IMG/VR virus record: IMGVR_UViG_3300044617_001276 | Location: 1 to 57,789 of that record | DNA length: 57,789 bases | Reading direction: 5' to 3' (one strand) | Origin: a virus | Shown: in pieces, positions 1,198 through 8,377 of the stretch | How positions within the stretch are numbered: position 1 is the first letter of the stretch | Layout: each line of letters opens with the position of its first letter | The notes under the pieces: generated by a model | The model's input: only the letters and a program-made list of their open reading frames with translations | Databases searched by the model: none | What the model was told of the DNA's origin: nothing | Program-made: the position numbers and the translations under genes

Positions 1198-1308
1198 TCA
1201 ACCACCAAAAGAAACGTCTGACAGCGGCGCACCCGAAAATGTGCCATCTGCTACCACACCAGCGCCGCCGCCTGCGCTGACAAAAAACGCTAAAATGACG
1301 CCACTCAT
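1198..1308 (-). CDS. Small 36-aa protein of the lysis/tail region
   Basis: A short frame starting MSGVILAFFVSAGGGAGVV and ending FGG. Its ATG overlaps the stop of the upstream gene as ATGA. It is preceded by a good ribosome-binding site (GAGGGG, about 6 bases before ATG), and its stop lies just before the holin ATG. The N-terminal half is hydrophobic and glycine-rich. I do not recognise it. The coupling on both sides and the strong Shine-Dalgarno sequence are the reasons for calling it a gene. Confidence 0.55.
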   Translation of the reverse strand: MSGVILAFFVSAGGGAGVVADGTFSGAPLSDVSFGG

Positions 1309-1574
1309 GCCATTCCCCTCATAAACACCACCGTGTCTGCATCTATAAATACCGCATTCATCATGCACCTCGGCGGAAACTCAATCACCGTAGACTTCAC
1401 TTTGCAGCCAGACCGATAACTATTCGGCACTTCGCATTGGATCGTTCCAAACTCTTCTTGATTATTGAAGAGAATCAGCGCGTCTCCTTGCGAAAATTCC
1501 CCGGCAGGAATTAACACCACCGGGGAATGCTCTATGTTCACGATCTTGTTGGCGTGTTCTTTAAGCAGCTTCAT
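1305..1574 (-). CDS. Small beta-rich phage protein (89 aa), fibre-end-like
   Basis: The start is taken at ATG 1574, whose ATGA overlaps the stop of the upstream gene; a longer in-frame start lies inside that gene and is rejected. The core (GDALILFNNQEEFGTIQCEV and STVIEFPPRCMMNAVFIDADTV) has the same layout as the C-terminal part of the 156-aa fibre protein at 7559-8029 (GDAVIIFNNTTAGITITCTI, then a hydrophobic ILFVSGTVCVVSG end). That suggests a shared small beta-sandwich module used in tail fibres. The resemblance is by eye; function unknown. Confidence 0.65.
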   Translation of the reverse strand: MKLLKEHANKIVNIEHSPVVLIPAGEFSQGDALILFNNQEEFGTIQCEVPNSYRSGCKVKSTVIEFPPRCMMNAVFIDADTVVFMRGMA

Positions 1575-2002
1575 GTCTTCGGATACTTTGCCTTGACCGC
1601 TGCAATCTGAGCCGTCATCGCAGCCGCAGCATCGCCACCCTTCCACATCGCATCCAGCTGGTCAGCCAATGATGGATACTCAGCACGCCGCTTGGCATAG
1701 TAGTCAGGGTTGTCAGGCCGCACGACCTCGGACTTATCAATATCCACTGTCTGTGGCTCACCACCCATAGGATCAGGAATCTCCCGAGTCTTAGGTGTCA
1801 ATGCAGCCCAAGCAGCTTCTTTGGCATCAATGTCAGCATAGATTGCCGCCTCTTTGGATGCGATATAAGCCGACAGATCAACGCCCGGAGGAATAAACAA
1901 CGTCCAGTCGTACGTCTGCCCGTTATGCTCAACCTTCAGATAAGCCAGCGCACGCTCTTCGTTTGGAGCAATGTTCGATGCAACGCCTTCCAATGAAATC
2001 AT
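1571..2002 (-). CDS. Phage tail-region protein with YPSLADQLDAMWKGG motif
   Basis: A 143-residue acidic protein. The C-terminal motif EYPSLADQLDAMWKGGDA is common in small phage proteins near tail-fibre genes, including XkdW-like and fibre-assembly proteins. The N-terminal part (LKVEHNGQTYDWTLFIPPGV) looks like a small beta domain. Its stop overlaps the next start as ATGA, and its own start lies just after the glycosyltransferase-methyltransferase stop. A fibre-assembly or tip role is plausible but is inferred only from position and the motif. Confidence 0.6.
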   Translation of the reverse strand: MISLEGVASNIAPNEERALAYLKVEHNGQTYDWTLFIPPGVDLSAYIASKEAAIYADIDAKEAAWAALTPKTREIPDPMGGEPQTVDIDKSEVVRPDNPDYYAKRRAEYPSLADQLDAMWKGGDAAAAMTAQIAAVKAKYPKT

Positions 2003-3351
2003 TTTGTAGCCTCCAATCTAAAGTTCTTGCCCGGATGCTGCCCAGTCGGCGGCAGTATCTGGATGTCTTTGAATCCTACATGGGCGCATAAGTCACGCAG
2101 AGAATCCGGCGTGTAACCCCACAGATGAGGAGACAACGCGCCGCCCTTTTCAGTCTCAGGCGTAATCCTGTCCACATGCGCCCCAAAAATACACATCGCC
2201 GTCATGTGCTGCTCAGCTCCCACTTGCATCAGGTAATCCTTGCAAAGCGCTGCCAAGTCAGGCGTCTCCAGCACCAACTTGCCGCCCTCTTTCAAGGTCT
2301 TGTACCAGTTGGTCAGGATGCCGGGAACACGGTGCTGCGGGAAATGCTCGATCACATGACTACCAAATATCTCATCTGCACAGCCCTCCGGCAGATCAAG
2401 CTCCATGATGTCCATCTTAATATCAGTGTCGCTGTGCATATCGACACCCATATAACCTTCCAACCGATCACGACCGCAGCCCATGTTGAAGCGGATAGGC
2501 TGGCCTTCCTCCTGCATCTGAGCAAGGATTGCCGCATACCCAGCACCGGGGCCAGTGCCTTTAGGCAGACGATCAGCCCAGCGCCGATCAATAAACTCTT
2601 TGTCATCCAGCGTCAGCGGTCTGGTGGGCGGGATGTTGGTGTAGTAGTTCTTCAAATCCACCGACGGATGCGCCGTATACATACCTGTCGCCAAGTCCAT
2701 GTGCAGACACTGAACGTCCGTGTTGACTAGCAGCTTTGTGCCGCGTTTGTGCAAACGATGAACAAAGAAGTTGTCCTCACCAATGAACGGTATCTCATCA
2801 TTGATGTTGTTGCCAATACAGCAGAAGGGCAAGTCAGGGTTTTCTGCCTTCATGTCTTGCAGGATCTTGATTGGGATCAGCATGATGTCCATGCCAGTCT
2901 GCCAAGCGTCAATGATCTGCCCCGGATCGACGTTCGGGATTGTGATCCAGTCACCCTCACGAACCATGATCATCGCGTCTGAGCACTTGATGTAGTACAC
3001 GCCTGTGATCACCGCGTCAGGATACTGCTCGGACGTGCGCATCAGCTTCTTGAATGCGTCGTAAGGAACAACCGTATCCTCACCAATAAAGAGCATGTAC
3101 TTGGCACCAGACTCCAGCGCCTGCTCTATCAGGTAGTTACGGGCAACGTCCACCTTCTCACCGCCGATATTGCAAAAGCCATGTGAGAAACCCATCAGGT
3201 CTACATGCAGACCGTCATACCCATCAAAATTCTGTGCGGCTGTTTCTTCTAAGTTGCGACGCGGTTGTGCAATCACGACGTACGGCTTAATAGTTTTAGA
3301 CTCGTCGTAGATTTCCTGCATCGTTGCGATGATTTTCTCTCGGTTGTACAC
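1999..3351 (-). CDS. Glycosyltransferase-methyltransferase fusion protein
   Basis: A 450-residue two-domain enzyme. Residues 1-240 look like a GT-A glycosyltransferase: a nucleotide-binding start, an ARNYLIEQAL helix, a YMLFIGEDTVVP strand with acidic pair E91-D92 (the usual DxD position), and a later FIGEDNFFVHR with a downstream CLHMD that fits the second acidic/His site. Residues 285-440 are a class I SAM methyltransferase: FNMGCGRDR (glycine-rich motif I, about 288-296), GVDMH (302-306), DEIFGSHVIEHF and a GGKLVLETPD strand. It lies beside the fibre genes, so it may modify a virion protein or a glycan. Substrate unknown. Confidence 0.8.
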   Translation of the reverse strand: MYNREKIIATMQEIYDESKTIKPYVVIAQPRRNLEETAAQNFDGYDGLHVDLMGFSHGFCNIGGEKVDVARNYLIEQALESGAKYMLFIGEDTVVPYDAFKKLMRTSEQYPDAVITGVYYIKCSDAMIMVREGDWITIPNVDPGQIIDAWQTGMDIMLIPIKILQDMKAENPDLPFCCIGNNINDEIPFIGEDNFFVHRLHKRGTKLLVNTDVQCLHMDLATGMYTAHPSVDLKNYYTNIPPTRPLTLDDKEFIDRRWADRLPKGTGPGAGYAAILAQMQEEGQPIRFNMGCGRDRLEGYMGVDMHSDTDIKMDIMELDLPEGCADEIFGSHVIEHFPQHRVPGILTNWYKTLKEGGKLVLETPDLAALCKDYLMQVGAEQHMTAMCIFGAHVDRITPETEKGGALSPHLWGYTPDSLRDLCAHVGFKDIQILPPTGQHPGKNFRLEATK

Positions 3352-3372: not shown

Positions 3373-4755
3373 TTAAAATTTATTGAAGAACGGCGATAGG
3401 GCGTAGCCTATATTTCTTGTTGTTCCGGTGGATATTTTTTCGCCTCTAACTGCACCATACGGTATAAAAACTATTGAACCGTCTTGAGCCAAAACTCCAC
3501 CAGAGTATCTGCCACCAATAGCAGTATTTATTAAGGCATACGTAGATACAACTCCTGTTGCTGATATTTTTTGACCTCTATCAGCATCATGTGGAACAAA
3601 GTGTATATCTCCATTTGGAGCTAATATGCCACCTTGATAAGCTGTTCCTGTTGTGTAAACTAAAGAGTAAGTCGAAACAACGCCAGTCACTGATATTTTT
3701 TGTCCTCTGTTTGCGCTGTCTGGAACAAAATGTATATCTCCGTTTGGAGCAAGAACGCCCCCAGCATATGGACCAGCCGTATTAACTAAAGAATAAGTTG
3801 AAACAACGCCCGCTGCTGAGATTTTTTGTCCAACAGGTGCATTGTGCGGAACAAAATGTATGTCTCCGTTAGGCGCTAATACGCCGCCCCAATACGCACT
3901 AGCTTGCGTGCGAACTAAGGAATAAGTAGATACTACTCCAGCGGATGATACTTTTTGACCAACCGCTGCATTCCAAGGCACAAAATGAATGTCGCCGTTT
4001 GGCGCGAGCACGCCACCCCTGTATTTGCTGCCGCCAGCCGTATAAACTAATGAGTAAGTAGAAACAACGCCAGAAGCGTCTACCTTCTGACCTCTAAGAG
4101 CATCGTATGGAACAAAATGTATATCACCATTAGATGCTAATACACCGCCATAAGCGTTCAAGCCGGATGTTGTATAAACTAATGAGTAGGTAGATACAAC
4201 GCCAGTCGCTGAGATTTTTTGCCCACGAACCGCCTTTATGGGAACAAAATGAATGTCCCCGTTAGGCGCAAGCACCCCGCCAGAATAAGCGTCTGCTATT
4301 GTGTAAACCAAGCTAAACGTACTCACCGCCCCTGCCGTATTGTTATTGTTGTACGGCACACCGTTGATGACTGTCCGGTCTAGCTCTTTCTTCAGGTTTG
4401 TCCACGCCACCAGATCAGTGCCTACCTGACTGGTATCCCCCTGCGGTACTGTTCCTTCTGTCGCGTCGGCGGGATAAGTACAAAACACATCCTTAGTGCC
4501 TGCTGCCCAATCTACTTTATTGTTGCTGTTGGAAGACTCAAAGACTGTATCCCGCGATAAGGTTGTGCCGCTAGACGTATAAGTACCAATCCCTATTTCC
4601 CAAGCAGTGCCGTTAGTAATGCAGTAGTAAGTTTGGTTGGCGTTGCCAATGACTGAGAAGTCTTGGAATCCTGCTACCGCCGCGCCGAGCGTGAACGTGC
4701 CAGTACCAGTCGTTGTGCTTGTTACTTTTACTCTATCTTTAACGACATAAGTCAT
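3373..4755 (-). CDS. Seven-repeat fibre/receptor-binding protein, copy A
   Basis: A 460-residue protein. The N-terminal region (about 1-115) is shared with copies B and C (KDRVKVTSTTTGTGTFTLG and GTYTSSGTTLSRDTVF) and is typical of phage fibre attachment parts. Seven repeats of about 43 residues follow, each of the form VVSTYSLVYT, a variable loop, GGVLAPNGDIHFVP, a variable loop, GQK. It ends in a conserved FNKF. Seven equal beta-rich repeats suggest a seven-bladed propeller, probably for receptor or glycan binding. The repeat region is visibly AT-rich compared with its neighbours. It lies 10 bases after copy B. Confidence 0.75.
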   Translation of the reverse strand: MTYVVKDRVKVTSTTTGTGTFTLGAAVAGFQDFSVIGNANQTYYCITNGTAWEIGIGTYTSSGTTLSRDTVFESSNSNNKVDWAAGTKDVFCTYPADATEGTVPQGDTSQVGTDLVAWTNLKKELDRTVINGVPYNNNNTAGAVSTFSLVYTIADAYSGGVLAPNGDIHFVPIKAVRGQKISATGVVSTYSLVYTTSGLNAYGGVLASNGDIHFVPYDALRGQKVDASGVVSTYSLVYTAGGSKYRGGVLAPNGDIHFVPWNAAVGQKVSSAGVVSTYSLVRTQASAYWGGVLAPNGDIHFVPHNAPVGQKISAAGVVSTYSLVNTAGPYAGGVLAPNGDIHFVPDSANRGQKISVTGVVSTYSLVYTTGTAYQGGILAPNGDIHFVPHDADRGQKISATGVVSTYALINTAIGGRYSGGVLAQDGSIVFIPYGAVRGEKISTGTTRNIGYALSPFFNKF

Positions 4756-4765
4756 GGCGTAATCC

Positions 4766-6160
4766 TTAGAACTTGTTCAGGTATGAGCTTAGGCAGGTGT
4801 CAAGGCCGAAGGGTATGGCGGGGTTGGTGGAGATTTTTTGGCCCCTTACTCCGCTTTGAGGAATGAAGTAAATTTCTCCAGTAGGTGATAACACTCCACC
4901 CCTAGAATTTGGATTTGATTGAACTAATGTGTAGGTAGACACAACGCCTGTCAAATAATTAATTTTTTGACCTCTTGCCGCATTACTTCCCGGAACAAAA
5001 TGTATATCGCCGTTAGGAGCTAACACGCCGCCAACATAATTTGTATATTGTTCAATTATAGAAAATGTAGAAACAACACCTGATGTTGAAATTTTTTGTC
5101 CAACAGGGGCTGACTCAAAAGGGACAAAATAAATTTCGCCATTTGCGGCAAGAACGCCCCCGATGTTTACCTTACCATCAATAAATGTATAAGCTAATGA
5201 ATACGTAGACACAACACCTGCTGCTGATACTTTTTGCCCTCTGCGAGAGCTATATGGAACAAAATGAATATCTCCATTAGGAGCGAGAACCCCGCCAATA
5301 TATGCGCCTTGAGCGCGATCCGATGTATATACCAATGAATAAGTAGATACCACTCCAGCGGCAGAAACTTTTTGCCCAACCGCTGCAAAATATGGAACAA
5401 AATGTACGTCTCCGTTAGGAGCTAACACGCCGCCAGCATAAGCTGTTGCTGTTGTATAAACCAATGAGTATGTAGACACAACCCCAGAAGCATTTATTTT
5501 TTGCCCTCTATTCGCACCGTGAGGAACAAAATGTATATCTCCATTTGATGCTAATACGCCACCAATATAATTGCCAGCCGTATATACAAGAGAATAAGTT
5601 GATACTGTTCCAGTAAGATAATTAATTTTTTGGCCTACAACTGCACCATAAGGCACAAAATGTATATCCCCATTGGGGGCTAAAACACCCCCCCAATAAT
5701 CTCCTACTGTATTTACTACGCTATACGTACTAACTATCCCTGCAACACCGTTATTCCTAAACGTCACCCCAGCGTTGATGCTCTGGTACAGGTTCTTCTG
5801 GAAGTTGTCAAACGCTACGCCATCCGTGCCAATAGAACTGTTGTCCCCTGTCGGCGCTGATCCCTGTGTGTTCTCTGCTGGTTGCGGTACGTAGACATCT
5901 TTCGACCCCGCCGCAAAGTCAATCACCGATCCGGTAGACGAAGCCAGCACGGTATCGCGGGATAAGGTCGTACCACTAGCGGTATACGTGCCTATTCCTA
6001 CTTCCCACTGAGTTCCACCTACGATGGTGTAATAGGTCTGATTGCCATCGCCCACGCCGGAAAAGTTCTGATAGCCAGTAGATGCTGCCCCTAGCGTGAA
6101 CGTACCTGTCCCTGTCGTGGTGCTCGTAACTTTTATGCGGTCTTTGGTAACAAACGCCAT
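4766..6160 (-). CDS. Seven-repeat fibre/receptor-binding protein, copy B
   Basis: A 464-residue paralogue of the neighbours on both sides, with the same N-terminal part (KDRIKVTSTTTGTGTFTLG) and exactly seven GGVL(A/S)xxG repeats. Two repeats carry an inserted NYLTG before the next blade (INYLTG). One (about residue 370) has GEIYFVPFESAPVGQ, which is longer than usual. The variable positions are the loops just before GGVL and just after FVP; the strands are nearly constant. It ends LSSYLNKF like copy C (LSSFLNKF). A role in adsorption is inferred from its place in the fibre cluster and from the loop-only variation. Confidence 0.75.
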   Translation of the reverse strand: MAFVTKDRIKVTSTTTGTGTFTLGAASTGYQNFSGVGDGNQTYYTIVGGTQWEVGIGTYTASGTTLSRDTVLASSTGSVIDFAAGSKDVYVPQPAENTQGSAPTGDNSSIGTDGVAFDNFQKNLYQSINAGVTFRNNGVAGIVSTYSVVNTVGDYWGGVLAPNGDIHFVPYGAVVGQKINYLTGTVSTYSLVYTAGNYIGGVLASNGDIHFVPHGANRGQKINASGVVSTYSLVYTTATAYAGGVLAPNGDVHFVPYFAAVGQKVSAAGVVSTYSLVYTSDRAQGAYIGGVLAPNGDIHFVPYSSRRGQKVSAAGVVSTYSLAYTFIDGKVNIGGVLAANGEIYFVPFESAPVGQKISTSGVVSTFSIIEQYTNYVGGVLAPNGDIHFVPGSNAARGQKINYLTGVVSTYTLVQSNPNSRGGVLSPTGEIYFIPQSGVRGQKISTNPAIPFGLDTCLSSYLNKF

Positions 6161-6170
6161 GACAATAATC

Positions 6171-7559
6171 CTAGAACTTGTTCAGGAAAGAACTGAGGCA
6201 GATGCCGGGGCCGAGCGGGGAGCCGGGGTTGGTAGAGATTTTTTGAACTGGTTGATTGGTATTACTATCAAATGTAGGAAGAAAATAAATTTCTCCGTTT
6301 GGCGTTAAAACACCACCGGCATAAGCACCGACTGTCGTATAAATTAAAGAATAAGTTGATACTACGCCTGCTGCTGATACTTTTTGACCAACCGTTGCAT
6401 TTCTCGGAACAAAATGAATGTCGCCGTTAGGGGCTAACACTCCGCCACGATAACCATTTGTTAATGTATAAACTAAAGAGTATGTAGTCACTACTCCAGC
6501 AATAGATATTTTTTGACCTCGACGTTCTGGAACATAATGAATGTCACCGTTTGGTGCTAAAACACCTCCCCAAGACCCTGCTCCCGTATAAACTAAAGAA
6601 TAAGTTGATACTACGCCAGAGATCGAAATCTTTTGTCCTACGCGAGCAAAGTCAGAAATAAAATGTATATCTCCGTTTGGGGCTAAAACACCACCTCGAT
6701 ATGCTTCGCTTGTTGTATACACAAGAGAATATGTTGAAACAACACCAGCAGAAGATACTTTCTGTCCACGCACCGCCTCATTAGGAACAAAGTGTATATC
6801 TCCGTTGGGGGCAACAACACCACCTATATACGCACCATTAGAATTTGTGTAAACCAAAGAATAAGTAGAAACAACACCAGAAGCAGATATTTTTTGACCA
6901 ACCTGAGCGGCATAAGGAACAAAATGAATATCGCCATTAGGAGCTAAAACTCCGCCACTATATGTGCCTACCGTATAAACCAATGAATAAGTAGAACTAA
7001 CGCCCGTAACAGGGTTAATTTTTTGTCCTCTATTTGCTGACTTTGGAACAAAATGTATATCACCGTTTGGGGCTAAAACACCACCTTCATAAGCGGCTTG
7101 TGTTGTGTAAACCAAATTAAACGTACTTACAATCCCATTAGTTCCATTGTTCCCGAACGTAGTACCACCTGCTACACCGTTATTAAGCGCTGCTTGAAAC
7201 GCAGTCCAGCCTGAGAGATCAGTACCTATCTCACTATCATCACAGTACGGAACGCCCAAAGGCATCGCCGCAGCTGGGTAAGCACACAGCACATCTTTGG
7301 TACCGGCTGAGAAATTAACTAGCGCACCGCTATTCGATGAACCAAACACTAGCTGTCTGGATAACGTCGTACCTGAAGAGGTGTACGTACCCTTGCCTAC
7401 TTCCCACTCAGTCGTGCCTTTGATGACGTAGTAGGTTTCGTTGCCGTTGCCGATGACAGAAAAGGACTGATAGCCTGCCGCTGCAGAACCAAGGGTGATC
7501 GTCCCCGTACCTGTTGTCGTGGTAGTGGACTTGACTCTGTTTTTGAGTACGAGCGCCAT
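6171..7559 (-). CDS. Seven-repeat fibre/receptor-binding protein, copy C
   Basis: 462 residues from ATG 7559 (MALVLKNRVKSTTTTTGTG). This start overlaps the TAA of the upstream gene as TAATG, so a longer start at 7586 is rejected. It has seven repeats like copies A and B. The fifth is shortened (DIHYVPERRGQK), and the last has an insertion (FDSNTNQPVQK). The N-terminal module is again the shared one. Three complete copies in tandem with the same repeat number point to gene triplication and then loop divergence. The DNA of the repeats is AT-rich and has many similar runs that could recombine. Confidence 0.75.
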   Translation of the reverse strand: MALVLKNRVKSTTTTTGTGTITLGSAAAGYQSFSVIGNGNETYYVIKGTTEWEVGKGTYTSSGTTLSRQLVFGSSNSGALVNFSAGTKDVLCAYPAAAMPLGVPYCDDSEIGTDLSGWTAFQAALNNGVAGGTTFGNNGTNGIVSTFNLVYTTQAAYEGGVLAPNGDIHFVPKSANRGQKINPVTGVSSTYSLVYTVGTYSGGVLAPNGDIHFVPYAAQVGQKISASGVVSTYSLVYTNSNGAYIGGVVAPNGDIHFVPNEAVRGQKVSSAGVVSTYSLVYTTSEAYRGGVLAPNGDIHFISDFARVGQKISISGVVSTYSLVYTGAGSWGGVLAPNGDIHYVPERRGQKISIAGVVTTYSLVYTLTNGYRGGVLAPNGDIHFVPRNATVGQKVSAAGVVSTYSLIYTTVGAYAGGVLTPNGEIYFLPTFDSNTNQPVQKISTNPGSPLGPGICLSSFLNKF

Positions 7560-8029
7560 TAGGTGACATTCCCTGAAACAACACAAACGGTGCCAGATAC
7601 AAACAGGATGCTTGCAATACCACGAGTCGCTAATGTCATCGTCGCCTTATCAGTGTCCGTTCCGGCAATATAAGCCGTCGTAATCGTACAAGTAATCGTA
7701 ATCCCTGCGGTCGTATTGTTGAAGATAATGACAGCATCACCTGCCGCAAACGTCGCATCAGGGATCGTAATCGAGCCGCCTGTGCCAACTTCAATAGTCT
7801 GACCAACGTCTGTGGTCAATAAGGTGTAATTGGTTGTTTTTGCAGCGCCTGAAATTGGAATGCCGGGTGCTGCCAACATCTCTACCGTTCCAGACGAATT
7901 CTCGCAGTACAACTTCATGTCTGCGATGTTCAATCCAAGTTCACCTTGCGCTAGGTTCGCAGCAGAAGGCGCGTTGCCTGCGGTGGTGCTGTGATAGAGT
8001 TGGATTGGTGTGTAACCGGTTTGTGCCAT
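7559..8029 (-). CDS. Tail-fibre/collar-type structural protein (156 aa)
   Basis: The N-terminal part (TPIQLYHSTTAGNAPSAANL, then AQGELGLNIADMKLYCENSS) has the LAxGELxxNxADxKLY motif common in phage fibre proteins. The C-terminal half is a small beta module (GGSITIPDATFAAGDAVIIF, ending ILFVSGTVCVVSG) that resembles the 89-aa protein at 1305-1574. It is coupled by TAATG to copy C of the seven-repeat proteins and may act as an attachment or trimerisation piece for them. Structural role inferred from motif and context. Confidence 0.7.
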   Translation of the reverse strand: MAQTGYTPIQLYHSTTAGNAPSAANLAQGELGLNIADMKLYCENSSGTVEMLAAPGIPISGAAKTTNYTLLTTDVGQTIEVGTGGSITIPDATFAAGDAVIIFNNTTAGITITCTITTAYIAGTDTDKATMTLATRGIASILFVSGTVCVVSGNVT

Positions 8030-8032
8030 GAT

Positions 8033-8377
8033 TTACCTCAAATTTTCGATTTTGTACAACGTCTTCATGTAAATCGCCGCCATCTCATCGAGGATATTTT
8101 CCAATGCCGGCACATTTTTAGCGATTTTCGCTCGATTCTCAACAAGCCACAACATTTCGTCTCTCAGCACTTCTGCGATGTCCGGCACACCGTCGGGCGC
8201 TTTTTCCATTTGGCCGAACGTGCCTTGATGCGCTTCCACATATTTGTCGATGGAACCAATTATCTCTTCATAAAACTCGCCCAACGCTTCATGCTGAGAA
8301 AACGAGTTGGTTGTCCAATGGTTGGCGTGCGCGGCGTTACGCACTTTGAACACACGGGTTATTAGCTTGTCCAACAT
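8033..8377 (-). CDS. Dps/ferritin-like small helical protein
   Basis: A 114-residue, all-helical protein. The stretch HANHWTTNSFSQHEALGEFY, followed by EEIIGSIDKYVEA, resembles the Dps signature in which a His-Trp pair and a later His lie on the first helix (HWNxxGxxFxxLHxxFDE). A second helix with acidic residues (LRDEMLWLVENRAKIAKN, then ENILDEM) would complete a ferritin-like bundle. Similar short proteins occur in T4-like cyanophages (DUF5856-type, from memory). It is unusual among fibre genes and may be a metal-binding or virion-associated protein. Iron-binding residues cannot be confirmed here. Confidence 0.55.
   Translation of the reverse strand: MLDKLITRVFKVRNAAHANHWTTNSFSQHEALGEFYEEIIGSIDKYVEAHQGTFGQMEKAPDGVPDIAEVLRDEMLWLVENRAKIAKNVPALENILDEMAAIYMKTLYKIENLR

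What the first reader, a model, noticed from the sequence alone, without database searches (positions are those of the whole stretch)
3373..7586. Tandem triplication of seven-repeat, AT-rich probable receptor-binding proteins
Three adjacent genes (460, 464 and 462 aa) have the same attachment-like N-terminus, exactly seven repeats of about 43 residues with a constant GGVLAPNGDIHFVP core, and a common FNKF end. Variation is concentrated in two loops per repeat. The DNA is visibly AT-rich next to the surrounding genes, and repeat cores are near-identical. Seven equal repeats suggest a seven-bladed propeller. Three parallel copies could form a mixed fibre tip or a reserve of binding specificities that change by recombination. 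No reverse transcriptase or template repeat is present, so this would be a DGR-independent way to vary a phage adhesin.
Basis: partly seen in the sequence, partly recalled or inferred. Interest (0 to 1): 0.85.

Follow-up and report, generated by a model that had tools for sequence, protein, structure and literature searches.

The report
Three swappable propeller heads on phages
Many uncultured phages carry the same row of three propeller-shaped tail proteins whose outer face differs in almost every phage because whole propellers are swapped, while the parts that hold them in place stay fixed, which suggests a three-part host-recognition tip that changes its grip without the known mutation machinery.

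Summary
Three adjacent minus-strand genes (462, 464, 460 aa) each hold seven ~43-residue repeats. AlphaFold2 (one copy, position 3) gives a seven-bladed propeller; its best solved match is virginiamycin B lyase (VIA-align Z 33.8). Relatives change the picture. Of 49 unique cassettes visible on both sides, 43 have exactly three genes, and three more apparently have three subunits with the third split (4+3 blades). A glycosyltransferase gene follows in 47 of 49; all 59 distinct copies of it with visible upstream DNA follow a propeller gene. Attachment domain, linker helix and C-terminal tail are specific to position 1, 2 or 3, with few exceptions; propellers are not. Between close phages DNA identity averages about 90% up to residue 138, drops to saturation over 139-438, and recovers at 439. 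Blade cores are conserved only as protein; two loops on one face vary in nearly every blade. No reverse transcriptase was found in 31 records. Best reading: a three-subunit adsorption tip with exchangeable, hypervariable heads and a dedicated modifying enzyme. Heteromeric assembly and the enzyme's substrate are inferred; positions of the two cassette types could not be matched. Module swapping is known; this architecture was not found described in ten searches.

The parts
6171..7559 (-). propeller gene, position 1 (462 aa)
   Evidence: ORF; 7 blades; Vgb_lyase 38.7 bits, below the 50-bit cut-off
4766..6160 (-). propeller gene, position 2 (464 aa)
   Evidence: ORF; 7 blades; Vgb_lyase 34.1 bits, below cut-off; PDB 2z2p E 6.5e-6
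3373..4755 (-). propeller gene, position 3 (460 aa)
   Evidence: ORF; 7 blades; Vgb_lyase 61.6 bits, above cut-off; AF2 model
4468..4755 (-). N-terminal attachment domain of position 3 (residues 1-96)
   Evidence: matches 6 phage records at 45-70% identity, 4 of them annotated as tail fibre; position-specific
4342..4467 (-). linker and helix of position 3 (residues 97-138)
   Evidence: position-specific, nearest neighbour same position 1.00; low pLDDT in the monomer for most of it
3430..4341 (-). exchangeable seven-bladed propeller of position 3 (residues 139-442)
   Evidence: 28 strands; DNA identity between close phages falls to saturation here
3376..3435 (-). C-terminal tail of position 3 (residues 441-460, ends FNKF)
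   Evidence: position-specific 0.95; pLDDT 35-55 in its last two blocks
6234..7145 (-). propeller of position 1
   Evidence: repeat HMM envelopes
4829..5749 (-). propeller of position 2
   Evidence: repeat HMM envelopes
1999..3351 (-). glycosyltransferase-methyltransferase gene (450 aa, GTG start), conserved partner of the trio
   Evidence: N-half homologue downstream in 47 of 49 closed cassettes; 59 of 59 distinct copies with visible upstream follow a propeller gene; GT-A-like fold plus methyltransferase
1571..2002 (-). 143-aa gene following the glycosyltransferase, function unknown
   Evidence: homologue near 45 of 49 closed cassettes
7559..8029 (-). 156-aa tail-fibre-like gene upstream; its C-terminal ~100 residues recur upstream of many type A trios
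   Evidence: PHROG tail-fibre matches; recurrence

Best explanation
The three genes encode three non-interchangeable subunits of a phage adsorption tip. Each subunit is a fixed holder (attachment domain in type A cassettes, linker helix, C-terminal tail) carrying one exchangeable head, a seven-bladed propeller. The strands, and the turns on one face, are held almost invariant; two loops per blade on the other face vary, giving about 7 x 7 variable residues per head. New heads arrive by recombination that replaces the propeller between the conserved helix and tail. Blades also recombine within a genome, and in some lineages point changes in the loops add to the variation. The adjacent glycosyltransferase, usually fused to a methyltransferase, is a dedicated partner that most likely adds a (methylated) sugar to these heads or holders. 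SHOWN by sequence or model: fold of one copy, variable and invariant positions, position-specific ends, exchange at the fold boundary, conserved count, enzyme linkage. INFERRED: host binding, assembly of the three into one tip, the enzyme's substrate.
For: Fold. Loops: 709 distinct of 820 loop-1 and 437 of 625 loop-2 sequences; 594 distinct pairs of 611. Position-specific ends: nearest neighbour in same position 1.00-0.96 in N-domain, linker and helix, 0.28-0.42 in each blade, 0.95 in the tail (79 type A rows); linker 0.71, helix 0.81, blades 0.27-0.46, tail 0.80 in 29 type B rows. Exchange: mean identity steps at residues 139 and 439; fourfold sites in cores mostly 0.2-0.5 in pairs whose enzyme gene keeps 0.58-0.94 there. 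Cross-position transfer: L019 position 2 blades 5-7 are 97.8% identical to L028 position 3, stopping at the tail. Count three: 43 of 49, 41 of them with 7+7+7 blades, plus 3 with a split third gene. Enzyme linkage 47 of 49 and 59 of 59. Mantel r of enzyme against holders 0.41-0.86, against propellers -0.02 to 0.22 (16 type A phages). Gene junctions -4 to 15 nt in 78 of 78 (39 of 42 trios). Receptor context: tail-fibre N-domain, LamG lectin-like inserts in L060 and L062.
Against: No complex, expression or binding data. Type A and type B positions do not match each other (7 of 29 and 10 of 29, chance about 10), so one ancestral ordered trio is not shown. Three of 49 cassettes do not have three subunits: L197 four genes, L176 two, L193 one. 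Tails are not absolutely fixed: L026 position 2 carries a position 1 tail, and the tails of L042 and L053 fit the pattern poorly. In type A each copy has its own attachment domain and could form its own fibre. Missing position signal in the propellers partly reflects saturation. In some close pairs the holders had changed too (L025/L041, L008/L024 position 1), and in others the propeller had not (L068/L069). Pooled pN/pS at variable residues is 0.64, not above 1. L073 and L190 lack the enzyme. The model is a monomer of one copy, pTM 0.70.
Confidence: 0.6

Rival explanations
1. Three separate fibres: each gene forms its own homotrimeric fibre with its own specificity, and the phage simply carries three of them.
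For: Type A copies have their own attachment domain; a four-gene, a two-gene and a one-gene cassette exist; a named cyanophage has a single propeller gene of this family in its whole record.
Against: The count is three in 43 of 49 (46 with split genes), across 28 type A and 21 type B cassettes taken together; helices and tails are position-specific within each type; holders co-inherit.
Confidence: 0.33
2. The propellers are enzymes, like virginiamycin B lyase, acting on host surface glycans.
For: Nearest solved structures are streptogramin/virginiamycin B lyases; tail enzymes are common in phages (recalled).
Against: The variable loops lie on one face with 594 distinct loop pairs in 611 blades, leaving little room for a fixed active site there; the lyase's catalytic residues were not mapped here.
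Confidence: 0.1
3. The glycosyltransferase acts on the host surface or DNA and only happens to be co-inherited with the tip.
For: Phage enzymes that modify host serotype or DNA are known (PMC12619734 passages); TarP, a fold match, acts on teichoic acid (recalled).
Against: Every distinct copy with visible upstream DNA, 59 of 59, sits directly after a propeller gene; fold matches also include enzymes titled or recalled as acting on proteins (LH3, COLGALT1) and viral A197 and R699.
Confidence: 0.3
4. A local hypermutation process, rather than import, makes the propellers diverge.
For: Three of eight close comparisons have almost only nonsynonymous changes at variable residues (9:0, 10:1, 4:1); propeller third positions are AT-rich.
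Against: Divergence between close phages is near saturation at synonymous sites of conserved cores as well; no reverse transcriptase found in 31 records; a block of three blades moved between positions.
Confidence: 0.07
5. Some patterns are assembly artefacts: short-read assemblers collapse repeats or join strains.
For: The trio-bearing relatives are all metagenome contigs; L032 has a shortened third gene and L117 a broken first one.
Against: The identity steps recur at the same residues in pairs from many sample numbers, and chimeras do not create synonymous saturation.
Confidence: 0.05

Closest known systems
Virginiamycin B lyase / streptogramin B lyase (Vgb, PF24684)
   Same: Seven-bladed propeller, Z 33.8 over 295 residues; position 3 scores above the Pfam cut-off
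   Different: 16-20% identity; positions 1 and 2 below the cut-off; two hypervariable loops per blade; phage holder domains; no evidence of lyase activity
Recombinational exchange of phage host-recognition modules (metaviromic islands; PMC3909814 and PMC7468147, passages read)
   Same: Close genomes with wholly diverged host-recognition modules, attributed to recombination in PMC7468147
   Different: Here the exchanged unit is one closed fold in a gene kept as an ordered trio, with invariant framework and two hypervariable loops per blade; no metagenome recruitment was done here
DGR-diversified phage receptor-binding proteins, e.g. tentaclins (PMC10743442, passages read)
   Same: Sometimes more than one hypervariable target gene; fixed scaffold with variable surface residues
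   Different: No reverse transcriptase found in 31 records; synonymous saturation argues for import
Cylindrospermopsis phage CrV gp012 (MH636380)
   Same: C-terminal seven-blade propeller of the same family and an LNKI end, 35% identity
   Different: Only one matching place in the whole 104 kb record, in a 1138-aa gene; no trio; the partner enzyme has no match at E 1e-5 in the collection of named phages
Virion-glycosylating phage glycosyltransferases (mycobacteriophages; cited in PMC12619734 passages, original not read)
   Same: Phage enzyme proposed to modify virion proteins
   Different: Here the enzyme is tied to one tail cassette and often fused to differing methyltransferases; substrate unknown

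Membership tests
Virginiamycin B lyase family (PF24684) | Pfam gathering score (50 bits) | tested here: inconclusive
   Position 3: 61.6 bits, met; position 2: 34.1 and position 1: 38.7, not met
Virginiamycin B lyase family (PF24684) | Closed seven-bladed propeller | tested here: met
   28 strands in 7 sets of 4; Z 33.8, rmsd 2.2 over 295 residues; one copy modelled
Virginiamycin B lyase family (PF24684) | Catalytic residues and lyase activity | not tested
   2z2p is an H270A mutant by its title; its site was not mapped onto these proteins
DGR target protein | Reverse transcriptase nearby | tested here: not met
   No RVT_1 in the window or in 30 of 30 relatives' records searched; records may be fragments
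Phage tail fibre / receptor-binding protein | Tail-attachment domain shared with annotated fibres | tested here: met
   N-terminal part matches 6 records at 45-70% identity, 4 of them annotated as tail fibre
Phage tail fibre / receptor-binding protein | Binding to host surface | not testable with these tools
   Needs experiment
Heterotrimeric fibre tip | Three distinct subunits encoded together | tested here: met
   43 of 49 cassettes, 46 with split genes; position-specific helix and tail, with exceptions such as L026
Heterotrimeric fibre tip | Physical 1:1:1 assembly | not testable with these tools
   Only monomer prediction is offered
Recombinationally exchanged host-recognition module | Sharp loss of identity between close genomes confined to the module | tested here: met
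   Mean steps at residues 139 and 439

The most novel reading that the evidence does not exclude
A phage adsorption tip built as an obligate heterotrimer of three different holders, each fitted with any head from a shared environmental pool of hypervariable seven-bladed propellers. The framework is fixed, like that of an antibody, and the heads are swapped whole, including between positions; a dedicated glycosyltransferase-methyltransferase decorates the tip. One kind of cassette serves both small phages and large T4-like phages.
Probability: 0.35. Interest if true: 0.88.

Novelty: new variant of a known kind. Interest (0 to 1): 0.73.

Why it matters
Phage receptor-binding variation is usually explained by targeted mutagenesis (DGRs) or by loosely bounded exchange of tail-fibre ends. 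Here the exchanged unit is one sharply bounded fold with an invariant framework, usually three to a set, in phages of very different size. If true, it gives a natural library of same-framework binders (three heads per phage, nearly every head different), a test of whether phage fibres can be heteromeric by design, and a tail-linked glycosyltransferase whose substrate can be sought.

Tried and rejected
Matching type A to type B positions: my impression of a shared PAIP motif at position 2 was not upheld (7 of 29 by raw centroid; 10 of 29 after centring; chance about 10). Recent DNA homogenisation as the reason for identical cores: rejected, codons are close to expectation. Cellular or prophage relatives: the genome-contig scan confirmed none (314 pattern hits). 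RNA families in loci with split third genes: none at gathering score in L173, L183 and L045. Known description: ten paper searches listed no phage propeller trio. PMC10966104, opened for 'heterotrimeric', uses the word for a baseplate wedge; its fibres are described as trimers of one gene product each (passages). PMC13429583 passages gave only general background. Positive selection at loops: clear in three of eight comparisons, absent in five, pooled ratio below 1 (the eight are seven gene pairs, one gene of L048 being in two ORFs).

Rows dropped before counts: one search left out four of 42 unique trios (L007, L032, L058, L060) from the A/B groups, and its B group contains the near-identical pair L068/L069. 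Alignment A1 holds 109 of 126 genes of those trios (genes with long inserts or truncation, L007 position 2, two L058 genes and the L069 trio left out). A2 holds 44 of 52 enzyme sequences. One search prints the 14 pairs with the most similar enzyme. One search used 20 pairs that I chose as close; its means use the 31-35 comparisons whose N-domain is at least 88% identical. Three comparisons kept recognisably the same propeller (L013/L014 position 3, L063/L067 position 3, L068/L071 position 2). One search used 16 type A phages with all data. One search used 39 of 42 trios; starts were assigned by motif. Loops were read where the patterns fitted (820 and 625 of 859 blades). One search covered 30 records of the many fetched.
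Full report
WHAT IS THERE. The window is an uncultured virus record of 57,789 bases. Three consecutive minus-strand genes, 6171-7559, 4766-6160 and 3373-4755, encode 462, 464 and 460 aa proteins with seven repeats each. They are separated by 10 nt, and by my reading the next gene's ribosome site overlaps the stop region. In 39 of 42 unique trios where starts could be assigned, all 78 junctions are -4 to 15 nt. The stretch is AT-rich (GC 0.451 against 0.552), mainly in the propellers.

FOLD. AlphaFold2 of position 3 with 109 aligned sequences gives mean pLDDT 83.5 and pTM 0.70, ten-residue blocks of 84-96 in the blades, and four strands in each of seven sets; the first strand (residues 143-148) completes the last blade (the closure is read from the strand order). 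Foldseek's best solved matches are streptogramin B lyase (E 8e-22) and virginiamycin B lyase; VIA-align gives Z 33.8, rmsd 2.2 over 295 residues, with other propellers near 26. Per repeat the order is strand VSTYSLVYT, variable loop 1, strand GGVLAP, conserved turn, strand IHFVP, variable loop 2, strand GQKIS, conserved turn. With alternating strands both variable loops lie on one face and both conserved turns on the other (topology, inferred). In 42 unique trios loop 1 has 709 distinct sequences of 820 read and loop 2 437 of 625, while core positions are near-invariant; 594 of 611 loop pairs are distinct.

RELATIVES. Six scans of viral contigs, with two window positions, one type B copy, one outlying copy and two forms of the enzyme, gave 333 loci; with the window they reduce to 81 unique cassettes, 49 of them with at least 1.5 kb visible on both sides. 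Of these 43 have three genes, 41 of them with 7+7+7 blades (L032 and L060 deviate). Three more (L173, L183, L325) apparently have three subunits with the third in two pieces. In L173 and L183, which I read, the gene is cut after blade 4 inside a variable loop, followed by a further domain (a weak Gly_rich_2 match in L183), another small gene, and an ORF with blades 5-7; L325 shows the same blade counts but was not read. L197 has four genes (14, 14, 14 and 7 blades), L176 two and L193 one. Of 148 ORFs in the 49 cassettes 137 have seven detected blades. The record of L108, cut in the census, has three genes with ORFs of 810, 1078 and 1452 aa. Type A cassettes have the attachment domain (most contigs to about 63 kb, L058 80 kb, L060 162 kb); type B lack it (contigs 19 to 238 kb). 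In L070 (type B) the genes after the cassette look like a T4-type terminase and sheath by my reading of the sequence; the window's own podovirus-like character rests on a weak SU10-adaptor match (25.0 bits, cut-off 27).

POSITION-SPECIFIC ENDS, FREE HEADS. In 79 type A rows the nearest neighbour shares the position in 96-100% of cases for N-domain, linker and helix, 28-42% for every blade, and 95% for the C-tail; in 29 type B rows 71% for the linker, 81% for the helix, 27-46% for blades and 80% for the tail. One search, on 27 and 11 trios, agrees (type A: N 78 of 81, tail 77 of 81, propeller 30 of 81; type B: tail 26 of 33, propeller 14 of 33). Exceptions exist: L026 position 2 has a position 1 tail, and L042 and L053 fit poorly. 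Most of the linker and helix, and the tail, have low confidence in the monomer, as expected if they fold with partners (inferred). Holders co-vary with the enzyme gene (Mantel r 0.41-0.86) and with each other (0.53-0.81); propellers do not co-vary significantly with the enzyme (-0.02 to 0.22), and among propellers r is -0.05 to 0.31 (16 phages). Type A and type B positions could not be matched, so a single ordered ancestor is not shown.

HOW HEADS CHANGE. In close pairs the mean DNA identity is 87-97% per ten-residue block for residues 1-140, 73% for 141-150, 54-80% from 151 to 440, and 86-92% from 441 on; in three-residue steps the drop is at 139 and the recovery at 439. In those propellers fourfold sites of conserved core codons are mostly 0.2-0.5 although the enzyme gene keeps 0.58-0.94 and most holders 0.6-0.95. 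Exceptions are the nearly identical pair L068/L069, pairs whose holders had changed too (L025/L041, L008/L024 position 1), and core values of 0.53-0.65 in L063/L067, L022/L023 position 1 and L014/L032 position 2. So heads were mostly replaced, not mutated in place. Near-identical blade blocks occur at shifted places in the same gene or in a sister gene (L060, L066, L137, L038, L073). In L019 the last three blades at position 2 are 97.8% identical over 315 nt to position 3 of L028, and the match ends where each takes up its own position's tail, while L019's own position 3 propeller is 71% identical to that of L028. Chimeric assembly cannot be excluded for that single case. Of eight close propeller comparisons (seven gene pairs), three have almost only nonsynonymous changes at variable residues (9:0, 10:1, 4:1) and five do not; pooled pN/pS is 0.64 at variable and 0.20 at framework residues. 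Propeller GC3 is low: 0.26 against 0.49 in N-domains and 0.56 in the enzyme gene in 37 type A cassettes, and 0.18 against 0.28 and 0.30 in 25 type B ones, which suits an AT-rich pool but could be an intrinsic bias. Propellers of one type sometimes have their nearest relative in the other type (10 of 80 A, 14 of 29 B), more than helices (0 and 3.5) or tails (0.3 and 5.5) do. No RVT_1 in the window or 30 relatives' records.

THE PARTNER ENZYME. The next gene, 1999-3351, has a GT-A-like N-half (best: STIV A197 Z 17.6, LH3 16.3; also mimivirus R699 14.6, TarP 13.5) and a SAM methyltransferase C-half (model, pLDDT 89, pTM 0.59). The name GT-A and the substrates of these matches are partly recalled. 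Its N-half homologue lies within 2.6 kb after 47 of 49 closed cassettes (not L073, L190), and 59 of 59 distinct copies with visible upstream DNA sit directly after a propeller gene, with 10 more cut by contig ends. In four tested homologues the methyltransferase half is Methyltransf_23/11, Methyltransf_24/TylF, Methyltransf_11 or absent, so the GT half is the constant part. It has no match in the named-phage collection. A 143-aa gene lies nearby in 45 of 49.

FUNCTION. The N-domain matches annotated tail fibres; LamG lectin-like domains (L060, L062) or a second propeller-like stretch with weak scores (L009, L027) are inserted between N-domain and helix in some copies. This is receptor-binding context, not proof of binding.

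NOVELTY. Exchange of host-recognition modules in natural phages is established (PMC3909814, PMC7468147; passages read), and more than one variable receptor-binding gene exists in some DGR phages (PMC10743442, passages). I found no description of this trio, its fold-bounded head exchange or its enzyme partner in ten searches of the open library (listed in Tried and rejected); most subscription papers and bioRxiv are not held there. I file it as a new variant of a known kind.

Noticed in passing
L173 9246-11558 and L183 9246-11948 (L325 has the same blade counts): The third propeller gene is naturally split into a 4-blade ORF with a further C-terminal domain and a 3-blade ORF with its own start, with another ~160 aa gene between; recurs in separate contigs.
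   Followed up: partly
L108 record (63.5 kb) and L197: Multi-propeller versions: three genes with ORFs of 810, 1078 and 1452 aa, and four genes with 14, 14, 14 and 7 blades.
   Followed up: partly
window 1999-3351 and homologues: The glycosyltransferase half is constant while the fused methyltransferase belongs to different Pfam families or is missing.
   Followed up: partly
window 1571-2002: A 143-aa gene of unknown function lies near the cassette in 45 of 49 cases; its C-terminal ~46 residues match several PHROGs of unknown function.
   Followed up: no
window 1305-1646 and 7559-8029: The 113-aa protein and the tail-fibre-like 156-aa protein on opposite sides of the cassette share a related region (phmmer E about 1e-7).
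   Followed up: no
window 8033-8377: A 114-aa protein matching a PHROG named starvation-inducible transcriptional regulator lies between two tail-fibre-like genes.
   Followed up: no
L009 position 3, L027 position 1, L060 position 2, L062 position 3: Insertions between N-domain and helix: LamG lectin-like domains (L060, L062) or a second propeller-like stretch with weak scores (L009, L027).
   Followed up: partly
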